Below, one piece after another: positions 5,809-36,678 of a stretch of 64,000 bases of DNA. Below the pieces are notes generated by a model. The model worked only from the letters and a program-made list of their open reading frames with translations. It made no database searches and was not told the origin of the DNA. Origin of the DNA: Lachnospiraceae bacterium 3-1 (lineage in GTDB: Bacteria; Bacillota; Clostridia; Lachnospirales; Lachnospiraceae); the NCBI GenBank assembly GCA_000403255.2, contig KE159571.1, positions 214,250-278,249 of the forward strand, in the 5' to 3' direction. Position 1 is the stretch's first letter. The number at the start of each line of letters is the position of its first letter. Position numbers and translations under genes: made by a program.

Positions 5809-5824
5809 TGTAACAGTTCAGCCC
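5809..5824. repeat. 16-nt sequence shared with the edge of the large palindrome
   Basis: TGTAACAGTTCAGCCC here is identical to 35287-35302, at the left edge of the 683-bp palindrome. In both places a TTATTCAAA string follows within 15-35 bp. It lies just upstream of the promoter of the B12 operon. It could be a remnant of the same repeat family; its role is unknown. Confidence 0.5.
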
Positions 5825-5876: not shown

Positions 5877-5899
5877 TTAACCAGTTGAATAAATAAGCA

Positions 5900-6061
5900 T
5901 ACAGGTGTCAAAGCAATTGCAACATTGCTTTGGTGAAAAGGGAAATAGGTGTAAGTCCTATACGAACTCGTCACCGTAATCAGGGAGCAGAAGCCGATAT
6001 ATCACTGGGAAACTGGGAAGATGGCTGCTGTGATGATCTTTAAGTCGGGATACCTGCCTGG
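5900..6061 (+). promoter_or_regulatory. Cobalamin (AdoCbl-type) riboswitch
   Basis: Conserved blocks of the cobalamin riboswitch appear in order: ACAGGTGTC at the 5' side of P1/P2, AAAAGGGAA, GGTGTAAGTCC, CAGGGAGC, the CACTGGGAAACTGGGAAG region, GATGAT, and the B12 box AAGTCGGGATACCTGCC (6042-6058). It lies directly downstream of a promoter and upstream of cobalamin biosynthesis and transport genes, so it should turn expression down when cobamide is plentiful. No second copy was seen upstream of the pdu operon or the importer at 55.7 kb. Confidence 0.93.
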
Positions 6062-6180
6062 ATGTTGTACAGAAAAGTTTTTCAAACCACGAGTAATTGG
6101 TTGTCTGTCTGGATTTACAGAAAGCATGAAGAGCAGTTATCTGCATCCGTGTATTTCGTGAATTTATTCTGTGTACAAGT

Positions 6181-33896: not shown

Positions 33897-35189
33897 TTAA
33901 GACAGCTTTTTATACACAGCTTCTTTCCCTATCCCTTTCCTTTTCAGCATATTCCTATATGTGTTAAATTTGCTTTTTGGAACCTTTATGGTTGCTTTTT
34001 TATAGATTCCCTTAAATGCATTTGCACCAACCTTGGAAGAAGTTAGTTTTGTAGTTTTTATAATCACTGATTTCAAATTCTTACAGTTATAAAATGCCTG
34101 TTTACCGATACTTTTCACATTTACAGGAATTGTAATGCTTCTTAATCCTGTACATTTATAAAATGCACTAGTTCCAATGGAAGTCACATTTTTGCCGATG
34201 ATAACTTTTTTCAGTCTGCCATTCCCTTTGAACGCTTTGGATGCAATCGCCGTCACCTTATAGGTAATATTATCAATCTTAACTGTTGCTGGAACAGTGA
34301 TAGATGTTTTCACGCCGTTCATAGATTTCTGATAAGTAACTGTGCCGCCTTTTGTTCCTGCCTTCGTCACCTTATACTGTGCCTGGTTTTTGGAATCCAC
34401 CAGGAGATCTCCCTTTGCAGGTATTATCTCATTAAACTGACAGGTATAGGTTCCACCGCGAATACCTCCAACCTTTATATAATAAACTCCAGAAGTCAAC
34501 TCTAATTCCTTACTTATTGTCTTCTCATTCCAACTGTTCATACTATGCAGCTCTGACAGATTTCTATCATACAGATTGCACTGTATAAAATTGTTGGAGC
34601 ATTGAAGGATATATTTATATTTTCTAGCGGAAGAAATTGTCACCTTATACCAGTCCTCTTGATTGGAATTAGTAAGCACACCAGATACCTTACCATTCAT
34701 TCTCAAATTCTGCGGTGAATCATAAGAATCCATTTCTGCCGCTGTCATTCCACTGGTAGAAAAAGAAGTACACAGCTTATAATTTCCACCCCTTCCAAAA
34801 TTGTCGGAAATAGACACATAATATGTGCCTTGGGAAAGCCACTCTGCTATGGAATCCATACGGGGAGATGTTTCACTTCCTTCCAAGGGAGTTGCAGTAT
34901 CAATTTCTTTAAAATTGGAATCATACAGGGTAGCATATATATTTGGCGCATATGCCATTAGCTTTACATCCACTTGTCCTGCTGTTACAATCGTAAACTT
35001 GTAATAATCTGCAGTGTTGGGCCCCAATTCACATTTTCCGCTCCATACTCCATTTGTAGGCAGCGTAGTTGCAGTAGTAAAATCGCCAGCATACGCCGGA
35101 ACTGCCTTTGATGCTGTAATCACCGCCATTACCATTGCCATGTATAAGACAAACCTTTTCCATGCTTTTTCAAATCCTAGTTTTTTCAC
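33897..35189 (-). CDS. Secreted leucine-rich-repeat protein with PPC-like domains
   Basis: About 430 residues. A signal peptide (positively charged start, hydrophobic core, cleavage near VPAYAG, residue 34) is followed by two beta-rich segments similar to bacterial pre-peptidase C-terminal domains (about 35-145 and 150-260). A BspA/LRR_5-type repeat region follows from about 290 (IASKAFKGNGRLKKVIIGKN, VTSIGTSAFYKCTGLRSITI, then VKSIGKQAFYNCKNLKSVII). No LPXTG anchor is seen. The GTG start at 35189 has GGAGGAGAAATCTT upstream. A TATAAT box lies at 35235-35230 on the same strand with a poor -35. Such proteins are usually surface adhesins; this role is inferred. Confidence 0.82.
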   Translation of the reverse strand: MKKLGFEKAWKRFVLYMAMVMAVITASKAVPAYAGDFTTATTLPTNGVWSGKCELGPNTADYYKFTIVTAGQVDVKLMAYAPNIYATLYDSNFKEIDTATPLEGSETSPRMDSIAEWLSQGTYYVSISDNFGRGGNYKLCTSFSTSGMTAAEMDSYDSPQNLRMNGKVSGVLTNSNQEDWYKVTISSARKYKYILQCSNNFIQCNLYDRNLSELHSMNSWNEKTISKELELTSGVYYIKVGGIRGGTYTCQFNEIIPAKGDLLVDSKNQAQYKVTKAGTKGGTVTYQKSMNGVKTSITVPATVKIDNITYKVTAIASKAFKGNGRLKKVIIGKNVTSIGTSAFYKCTGLRSITIPVNVKSIGKQAFYNCKNLKSVIIKTTKLTSSKVGANAFKGIYKKATIKVPKSKFNTYRNMLKRKGIGKEAVYKKLS

Positions 35190-35280
35190 AAGATTTCTCC
35201 TCCTTTTTATGTCTCTTTTATCCTTTGTAATTATACTCCATTCCCATAAAAAAATCTAGTATATTGACCACTTCCACTTG

Positions 35281-35304
35281 AAGGGCTGTAACAGTTCAGC
35301 CCTT
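35281..35304. repeat. Small hairpin overlapping the left edge of the large palindrome
   Basis: AAGGGCTG (35281-35288), loop TAACAGTT, CAGCCCTT (35297-35304), followed by TT. The 3' half is also the outermost arm of the 683-bp palindrome, so the two pairings exclude each other. AAGGGCTG occurs four times across the element (near 35281, 35613, 35722 and 35972). Confidence 0.7.
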
Positions 35305-35979
35305 TTGGCTTTCTACATTACTTTATTCAAAGGATTCTTCAATGTAAGAATAAAAATATGGATGGGAGCTTCTATTGTTTTTTACAAATTTTCCTACTTT
35401 CACTTCCACAAGGAAACGCGGCTGGATTTCTAGTATTTCCAGTTCCAGGGATGGAAGGATGCTATTAATTCCCTCCAATTTAAACTCGGTTTTCCAGCCG
35501 ATGGGAGGATATCGAGGGGCGGGGCTGTTTTTCTGAGATTCGGAAGTCCTTCGTATGTTTTCCTTGCCAGCGGCAGAAAAGCCCCAATGGGTATGCCAAG
35601 CTGACCTGTTTGAAGGGCTGCTGCGCCAAGCCTTTTGAGTCTTTTCTATTCTATGGGGCAGTCCTGAGTTTCAGCGGCATACCCAAATCGAAGGGGCTTT
35701 TAGCGCTGTTAGGAAAACCAGAAGGGCTGTCCGTGAAGAAAAACAGCCCCGCACCATGATAATTTCCCACGCGGCGGAAAATCTCAAACAGTGAAATTGG
35801 AGGGAATACACTTCTTCCATCCCTAGAAGCAGAAAATACACGAAATCCACCGAATGTTTCCTTTCTTGGAAATGAAAGCAGGAAAATTTGTCTCAAATAT
35901 GGAAATACCCATCCATATTTTTATACTGTCAGTATGAAAATCCTTTGAATAAAGCTCTATTTCAGAGTCAAAAGGGCTG
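35297..35979. repeat. 683-bp imperfect palindrome (giant hairpin element)
   Basis: The two halves are reverse complements around a centre near 35638. Exactly matching blocks at equal distance from the centre include 35297-35306 with 35970-35979, 35321-35336 with 35939-35954, 35351-35366 with 35908-35923, 35384-35395 with 35880-35891, 35447-35457 with 35814-35824, 35468-35481 with 35794-35807, 35519-35534 with 35737-35752, and 35589-35597 with 35676-35684. Stretches between blocks are diverged but aligned, giving perhaps 65-75% identity by eye. It holds no convincing gene; frames of 72-81 codons on the minus strand are probably by-products. It separates the B12 and LRR region from the pdu operon, whose minus-strand transcript would read into it. 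It could be a structured non-coding RNA, a MITE-like element, or a long terminator. Confidence 0.88.
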
Positions 35980-36162
35980 ATACATAAAAAGCCATCGGGA
36001 AATAATAGTTTCATACAATACATAGACGCCATTATAAACACATGTGCTACCTACTGTAAGAAATATAACATTTTCCGACAGCTCTTAATTTTTATCCTTT
36101 TACTTTTCACTATCATCTTATCAAGCCTGATATTTGGCTGGGCATACCTCCACCAAAATTAA
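35953..36162 (+). pseudogene. Start-less open frame ending in a membrane segment
   Basis: Between an in-frame stop at 35950-35952 and the stop at 36160-36162 there are 69 sense codons with no ATG, GTG or TTG. The end encodes a convincing membrane helix (FILLLFTIILSSLIFGWAYL). It begins inside the right edge of the palindrome. It could be the 3' remnant of a small membrane protein gene whose 5' end was replaced by the element, or chance. Otherwise 35980-36171 shows nothing recognisable. Confidence 0.2.
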
Positions 36163-36171
36163 TGAATAGCA

Positions 36172-36678
36172 TTATAATTTTCCATATTTATTGGAAATCA
36201 CTGTACGTGGACGTTCCGCATCCTCTTCTGAATCCCAGGGAAGTTCATCTCCTGGCTCCCTTAAATAATTAAGAACCTGCCAAAGCCCTTCCCCTGTATA
36301 AGCGCTAACTCGAAACACTGGCCTGCACCCTGCCATTTCCAGCCATTGATGCGCCCGATCGGGATGGCCGTCTTCCCGGTCAATCTGTGTCACAATTCCA
36401 ATGACAGGCCGGTTACACGCAGCCGCACAGCAAGGCGGATAAATGGAATAAGGCTCTGCTGCATTCAACAGAAGACCAACCACGTCTGCCTCATAAGAAT
36501 ACAAGGCCAATGCACGCGCTAAGGTAGTAGTTTCCGCATATTCTCCCGGCGTGTCAATCACAACGTCATAGTGATTAATATATTGTGTCTTGTGATATGA
36601 AATCACGTCACCCTTAAGGGCTTGTGTCAAAGTAGTTTTCCCACATTCACTGCGCCCCATTAAAATAATCTTTTTCAT
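36172..36678 (-). CDS. pduV: PduV/EutP-type small GTPase-like microcompartment protein
   Basis: A 168-residue Ras-like P-loop protein. G1 is GRSECGKTT, G3 is DTPGEY, and the base-specifying motif is VTQIDRED. PduV/EutP proteins associate with the microcompartment shell, reportedly through PduU, and may help its placement in the cell. It is the last gene of the pdu operon and overlaps pduU by 4 bp. The cysteine-rich PPCCAAACNRP loop is a family feature. Confidence 0.9.
   Translation of the reverse strand: MKKIILMGRSECGKTTLTQALKGDVISYHKTQYINHYDVVIDTPGEYAETTTLARALALYSYEADVVGLLLNAAEPYSIYPPCCAAACNRPVIGIVTQIDREDGHPDRAHQWLEMAGCRPVFRVSAYTGEGLWQVLNYLREPGDELPWDSEEDAERPRTVISNKYGKL

What the first reader, a model, noticed from the sequence alone, without database searches (positions are those of the whole stretch)
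35281..35980. A 683-bp imperfect palindrome between the B12 region and the pdu operon
Both halves match as reverse complements along their whole length, with eight or more perfectly complementary blocks (9-16 bp) at equal distance from a centre near 35638 and diverged sequence between. That is far longer than a terminator. Retention of matching blocks on both arms despite divergence suggests that pairing or symmetry is selected: a very long structured RNA, a MITE-like palindromic mobile element, or a recombination/replication-related structure. It has no credible gene and I recognise no known large RNA class in it. The pdu transcript would run into it.
Basis: seen in the sequence. Interest (0 to 1): 0.75.

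Follow-up and report, generated by a model that had tools for sequence, protein, structure and literature searches.

The report
Hairpin transposon in gut Lachnospiraceae
The long palindrome is one of about thirty copies of a small non-coding jumping element whose two halves keep matching each other as it evolves, more likely through exchanges between the halves in DNA than because it makes an RNA.

Summary
The palindrome is real (window 35288-35983, 696 bp; fold z -20). It is one of 30 places found in the genome (7 near full length, the rest internally deleted or truncated), none inside an ORF. Copies end in GTAACAGTTCAGCC inverted repeats. Of the 23 with both ends, 16 have perfect 8-bp target duplications: a MITE. 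Broken IS66-family (ISBst12-like) transposase elements with the same or nearly the same ends occur in two congeners; one has a perfect 8-bp duplication. No such transposase was found in this genome. Five other genomes of the genus carry ~700-bp palindromic homologues. But arm mismatches show no G-U excess over A-C outside this genome (73:72; cross-clade 31:29), and six copies show inverted cores or switched arms. Best reading: a foldback MITE whose arms are kept alike at DNA level; arm overwriting itself is inferred. Against it: own copies lean to G-U (104:54), and two internal loops are conserved in 13 of 13 aligned elements.

The parts
35288..35983 (.). Window copy of the full-length foldback MITE (696 bp)
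   Evidence: 94.5-97.4% identical to six other near-full-length copies in the same genome; ends set by TIR comparison
35288..35305 (+). Left terminal inverted repeat GTAACAGTTCAGCCCTTT
   Evidence: Shared with other copies; exact 14-base core at 35288
35971..35983 (-). Right terminal inverted repeat, damaged by a 5-base deletion in this copy
   Evidence: Alignment A1 columns 713-717 are gapped in the window copy only, of 13
35288..35635 (+). Left arm
   Evidence: 80% identical to the reverse complement of the right arm
35636..35983 (-). Right arm
35482..35488 (+). Conserved internal-loop strand X (AAACTCG), outer loop, left arm
   Evidence: Present in 13 of 13 aligned elements
35783..35791 (-). 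Conserved internal-loop strand Y (CTGTTTGAG on the - strand here), outer loop, right arm
   Evidence: CTGTCTGAG or a variant with 1-2 changes in 13 of 13
35606..35614 (+). Conserved internal-loop strand Y (CTGTTTGAA here), inner loop, left arm
   Evidence: CTGTCTGAG or a variant with 1-2 changes in 13 of 13
35666..35674 (-). Conserved internal-loop strand X (CTGAAACTC on the - strand), inner loop, right arm
   Evidence: Identical in 13 of 13

Best explanation
It is a non-autonomous foldback MITE, most likely moved in trans by an IS66-family transposase of the ISBst12-like (single-ORF) kind. SHOWN: dispersed copies, common terminal inverted repeats, 8-bp target duplications, internally deleted forms that themselves spread as sub-families, IS66-type elements with the same or nearly the same ends in congeners, and core inversions between the arms. 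INFERRED: a DDE transposase acts on the terminal repeats and inserts the element between genes; and the two arms stay alike because replication template switching (quasipalindrome correction) or recombination between inverted arms copies tracts from one arm to the other. On this view the co-variation of the arms is mainly a by-product of DNA metabolism, with some further constraint on the ends and on two internal-loop motifs.
For: Copies: 87 BLAST matches counting both orientations, resolved to 30 places. TIR pattern with up to one mismatch: 59 hits against 0 for the reversed control. Duplications in 23 two-ended copies: 16 at 8/8, 2 at 7/8, 3 at 6/8, 1 at 5/8, 1 at 0/8; chance of 8/8 about 3e-5. 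None of 30 copies inside an ORF by a simple rule; in four a neighbouring ORF overlaps the end by 3-23 bases. Shared deletion breakpoints: L018/L019, L021/L022, L030/L032, L033/L035. Partner: G306:C153 holds an internally deleted element (pieces matching the G306:C39 IS66-type protein at 70 and 83%) with ends GTAACAGTTCAGCC and GTAACAGTTTAGCC and duplication AATTTTTT 8/8. G306:C39 has an IS66-type gene, in two frames, with the TIR about 50 bases after it, sharing 23 end bases at 91% with an own copy. G310:C3 has an IS66-type element, also in two frames, with both ends GTAACAGTTCAGAC and a 9-base repeat. Profiles: PF03050 over its cut-off; NF033517 significant but under NCBI's cut-off. ISDge4, ISBst12 group: one end GTAACTGCTCAGCA (11 of 14 bases), 8-bp repeat (PMC12898284 passages). 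DNA level: arm mismatches in six non-own copies 73 G-U to 72 A-C types; cross-clade pairs 31:29 strict. Core inversions or arm switches in 6 of 26 copies examined: L020, L022, L023 here, L187, L191, L192 in G315. L014 has two double-sided changes 11 columns apart. Template switching is reported to homogenise inverted-repeat arms and invert spacers (PMC8604942 abstract) and to maintain hairpins (PMC8794818 abstract).
Against: The arm-switched copies show inversion, which by itself does not make arms alike; overwriting is only hinted at by L014 and by the matching end variants. L020, L022 and L023 share a switch point and may be one event. Of 29 variable pairs among the seven own copies 22 vary on one side only. 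The own copies show more G-U than A-C mismatches (104:54 summed), though they share ancestry. Two internal loops stay mismatched and conserved, and paired columns are more conserved than unpaired ones; passive homogenisation predicts neither. Double changes cluster along the helix against G315 and G308 only (0 and 2 of 2000 shuffles), not against four others. Between G314_L092 and G316_L095 there are 2 double against 26 one-sided changes. No transposase of this kind was found in the own genome at E 1e-10 (genome 96.75% complete), and the partner copies whose ends were seen are broken. The window copy has no recognisable duplication.
Confidence: 0.65

Rival explanations
1. The element encodes a very long hairpin RNA and pairing is selected at RNA level; mobility is how the RNA gene spreads.
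For: Strong covariation: 95.5% of cells paired against 86.1% shuffled, 263 double-changed cells against 86.5. Conserved internal loops. Own copies show G-U above A-C mismatches, 104:54, and counts on the RNAalifold pairs lean to G-U, a program that favours such pairs.
Against: No G-U excess in the six non-own copies (73:72) or across clades (31:29 strict; 59:60 loose). No Rfam match. Promoter-like sites at chance level in 35100-36250 (4 found, 2.7 expected).
Confidence: 0.12
2. The hairpin is selected as DNA: a cruciform or single-strand hairpin with two conserved internal loops is needed for spread or is bound by a protein.
For: Equal G-U and A-C mismatches outside the own genome with Watson-Crick pairing kept. 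Loops X/Y conserved at two places. Full-length copies of 694-702 bp in six genomes.
Against: Deleted forms of 117-160 bp without the loops have perfect 8-bp duplications (6 of 6: L030-L035), and two pairs of them share breakpoints, so they moved after the deletion.
Confidence: 0.18
3. Neutral relic: the palindrome formed once, shortly before the species split, and has not yet decayed.
For: Arm divergence (19-23%) is not larger than most divergence between elements of different genomes (14-43%).
Against: 85 of 207 pairs carry changes on both sides with pairing kept; slid controls give 18-35.
Confidence: 0.03

Closest known systems
IS66 family, ISBst12 group (for example ISDge4 of Deinococcus geothermalis, PMC12898284)
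   Same: End GTAACTGCTCAGCA matches 11 of 14 bases, 8-bp duplication; one transposase gene between the ends in the congeneric elements
   Different: The window element has no transposase; its body gave only short, weak matches to the IS loci beyond the ends
Bacterial MITEs in general (recalled; Correia elements, Nezha)
   Same: Short, non-coding, bounded by inverted repeats, multi-copy, target duplications, intergenic
   Different: About 700 bp and palindromic over the whole length, not only at the ends
REPINs (PMC3116915, passages)
   Same: Dispersed hairpin units; compensatory changes on the two sides described as common
   Different: REPINs are attributed to RAYT tyrosine transposases; here 8-bp duplications, and far longer
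PATEs of haloarchaea (recalled, not read)
   Same: Long palindromic non-coding mobile elements
   Different: Different hosts; relation not tested

Membership tests
MITE (non-autonomous DDE element) | Multiple dispersed copies with shared terminal inverted repeats | tested here: met
   30 places; 59 TIR hits against 0 control
MITE (non-autonomous DDE element) | Fixed-length target-site duplication | tested here: met
   16 of 23 two-ended copies at 8/8; 7 copies without two ends set aside
MITE (non-autonomous DDE element) | No transposase inside | tested here: met
   two short ORFs tested, no Pfam match
MITE (non-autonomous DDE element) | Autonomous partner with the same ends | tested here: inconclusive
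   Broken IS66-type copies in G306 and G310; none in the own genome at E 1e-10
IS66/ISBst12-type ends | GTAA start and 8-bp duplication | tested here: met
   own IS66 elements with determined ends start GTAAGCG and GTAAACG
IS66/ISBst12-type ends | Transposition by that transposase | not testable with these tools
   needs a bench assay
Structured ncRNA | Covarying base pairs | tested here: met
   DNA-level arm exchange could give the same signal
Structured ncRNA | G-U tolerated more than A-C on the expressed strand | tested here: inconclusive
   Not seen in six non-own copies (73:72) or across clades (31:29); seen in seven related own copies (104:54)
Structured ncRNA | Transcript | not testable with these tools
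   no RNA-seq
REPIN | No target duplication (recalled) | tested here: not met
   8-bp duplications
REPIN | Associated RAYT transposase | not tested
   no search made

The most novel reading that the evidence does not exclude
A ~700-bp mobile hairpin whose body is a conserved DNA (or RNA) structure: a rod of about 200 pairs with two copies of one internal loop (X opposite Y) in opposite orientation. The strands of the two loops are cross-complementary (X with X', Y with Y') and could kiss, giving a defined fold that a protein recognises and that is inherited with the element across species.
Probability: 0.15. Interest if true: 0.75.

Novelty: new variant of a known kind. Interest (0 to 1): 0.45.

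Why it matters
Covariation of the kind used to call structured RNAs appears here in a DNA transposon whose mismatch pattern, outside one genome, does not favour RNA. If that holds, covariation screens can be misled by long palindromes, and comparing G-U with A-C mismatches between arms is a simple check. It also ties a set of MITE families spread over most sampled genomes of one Lachnospiraceae genus to the little-studied ISBst12 group of IS66, and the conserved paired loops are an open question.

Tried and rejected
Plasmids and phages by distant blastn: no match. 299 genomes of the family: the own genome plus four short matches of 22-56 bp, which I take as chance; only two candidates per genome were scored, so sensitivity was low. 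Viral contigs: three matches to an 18-base motif, none with a wider match to the element, taken as chance. A 3.4-kb TIR pair in G306:C177 looked autonomous but encloses lepA-like and other ordinary genes, with a separate short TIR-bounded element at one end. Own IS66 elements: two types were delimited and have other ends; a third, fragmentary one (L103) has no TIR within 3 mismatches in its locus. Weak IS66-like loci L156, L157, L159 and L160 have no matching TIR pair. Only 30 of the places listed were held as loci and checked.

An idea that each arm was once a whole element with an inner end-like site near the apex was dropped: a 10-of-14 match is not unlikely over this length (my estimate, no call). 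Clustering of double changes was seen in two of six comparisons and is not relied on. Isolated mismatches within helices were too few (G-U:A-C 11:9, 8:6, 2:5 by flank length, seven representatives).

Literature: nine searches; no title or abstract start listed there describes this element. Opened: PMC8794818 (abstract, start of introduction, outline), PMC8604942 (abstract, outline), PMC12898284 and PMC3116915 (passages). All others: listing only.

On rechecking, one search shows core inversions rather than one arm overwriting the other; I therefore lowered the main confidence from 0.72 to 0.65 and raised the RNA and DNA-selection rivals slightly.

Full report
1. Window 35288-35983 is an imperfect palindrome with arms 80% identical. 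It folds far better than shuffled sequence (DNA, + strand, z -20.4; RNA, - strand, z -19.0; 20 shuffles each). It lies between the end of the pdu cluster (PduV/EutP gene ending at 36172) and a BspA-type LRR gene starting at 35189, both on the - strand.

2. It is a dispersed repeat. The own genome (5.08 Mb, 27 contigs) gave 87 matches counting both orientations, which I resolved to 30 places and fetched with flanks. Seven, the window copy included, are near full length; the six others are 94.5-97.4% identical to it. The rest are internally deleted or truncated. Pairs of copies share deletion breakpoints (L018/L019, L021/L022, L030/L032, L033/L035), so deleted forms spread as sub-families.

3. 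It has transposon ends. Copies end in GTAACAGTTCAGCC.... The 15-base form with up to one mismatch occurs 59 times, the reversed control 0 times. Twenty-three of 30 copies have both ends by my criterion: 16 have a perfect 8-bp direct repeat, 2 match at 7, 3 at 6, 1 at 5 and 1 at 0 of 8; random pairs reach 8/8 at about 3e-5. The 7 set aside are L009 (the window copy), L020, L027, L028, L029, L036 and L037. The window copy has lost 5 bases of its right end and shows no clear duplication. By a simple ORF rule none of the 30 lies inside an ORF; in four a neighbouring ORF overlaps the element's end by 3-23 bases.

4. Partner transposase. In the genus the pattern GTAACWRTTCAGCC occurs in 25 of 29 genomes, with 3 control hits in all. 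IS66-family domains (PF03050) occur in 16 of 29. Following these, three elements bear the ends. G306:C39: an IS66-type gene, in two frames, with the TIR about 50 bases beyond it; its other end was not found. G306:C153: two pieces matching the C39 protein at 70 and 83%, between ends GTAACAGTTCAGCC and GTAACAGTTTAGCC, with duplication AATTTTTT. G310:C3: an IS66-type element in two frames with ends GTAACAGTTCAGAC and a 9-base repeat. Twenty-three end bases of G306:C39 match an own copy at 91%. Profiles: PF03050 over its cut-off for C39, C51 and G310:C3; NF033517 significant but under NCBI's cut-off for C39 and C51, absent for the G310 piece tested. A published ISBst12-group element, ISDge4, has an end GTAACTGCTCAGCA and an 8-bp repeat (PMC12898284, passages). 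No homologue of the C39 protein reached E 1e-10 in the own genome. The kind of partner is well supported; the actual partner is not seen.

5. Homologues. By DNA search 8 of 29 genomes of the genus, the own included, match. Six (own, G308, G314, G315, G316, G321) have homologues of about 700 bp palindromic over their length; G322 and G323 hold a shorter relative. An exact-pattern scan of genome contigs gave 10 stretches, all in Lachnospiraceae assemblies, all matching the aligned elements. Such a scan misses diverged members, so the true range may be wider.

6. The arms co-vary. I aligned 13 elements (7 own, 6 from five other genomes); copies cut by contig ends or internally deleted were left out. 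RNAalifold found 207 pairs, 85 with at least one double-sided kept change. 95.5% of cells pair against 86.1% in shuffles and 39.5-53.2% in slid controls; double-changed cells are 263 against 86.5 shuffled and 27-60 slid. Shuffles ignore relatedness. Arm identity is 77-81% in each of 13; representatives from different genomes differ by 14-43%.

7. RNA or DNA? An RNA product should tolerate G-U and not A-C mismatches on its strand. With arms aligned symmetrically, six non-own copies have 73 G-U and 72 A-C types; seven own copies have 104 and 54. The own copies share ancestry, so that excess is roughly one observation, but it is against my reading. Pairs defined in one clade and counted in the other gave 31:29 (strict) and 59:60 (loose). 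Counts on the RNAalifold pairs lean to G-U, as expected of a program that favours such pairs.

8. Arm exchange. At sites where the arms differ I called each arm of 26 copies (17 own, 9 G315) as left-type or right-type. Most keep one type. L022 is left-type outside and right-type inside on one arm and the reverse on the other: an inverted core. L020 and L023 switch at about the same point, so the three may be one event. In G315, L191 and L192 also look like inverted cores and L187 switches on one arm. Inversion shows that the arms recombine; it does not by itself make them alike. Hints of overwriting: the variants CA and TG at columns 19-20 match between the two ends in 19 of 22 copies with both sites, of 24 placed (Fisher P 0.0015, ignoring relatedness), and L014 has two double-sided changes 11 columns apart, one half of one (492 C to T) also occurring without its partner in L010. 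Against fast overwriting, 22 of 29 variable pairs among the seven own copies vary on one side only. Template switching is reported to homogenise arms and invert spacers (PMC8604942 abstract) and to maintain hairpins (PMC8794818 abstract).

9. What does not fit a passive view. Two internal loops are conserved in 13 of 13 elements: one strand has AAACTC, the other CTGTCTGAG with at most two changes. The same two strands occur twice in opposite orientation, so strands of one loop could pair with strands of the other. Homogenisation should have erased these mismatches. Yet deleted copies of 117-160 bp without the loops (L030-L035) have perfect duplications in 6 of 6, so the loops are not needed for movement as such. 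I leave this unexplained.

10. Verdict. A foldback MITE with IS66/ISBst12-type ends; nine literature searches (listed in Tried and rejected) showed no description of it. The MITE claim is close to certain, an IS66-type partner likely, a DNA-level cause of the arm matching more likely than not, and its sufficiency without selection open.

Noticed in passing
window 5810-5824 (+): A single perfect copy of the element's end (GTAACAGTTCAGCCC) sits 76 bases upstream of the cobalamin riboswitch (5886-6075); no second end at up to 3 mismatches in the 8-kb locus L076.
   Followed up: partly
L077 (G000:C1:615061), L078, L079, L080, L082: Further solitary end copies in the own genome; by eye, L077 lies just before a tRNA-like sequence (no tRNA search made) and L082 holds two ends almost back to back, about 32 bases.
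   Followed up: partly
G317, G306, G322, G323: These congeners carry 111, 50, 43 and 47 TIR hits; many listed pairs lie within 200 bp of each other, so other MITE families with different bodies seem to share these ends (bodies read only for a few).
   Followed up: partly
L156 (G315:C45:14934-15872) and L160 (G306:C15): Other IS66-like transposase genes without this TIR.
   Followed up: no
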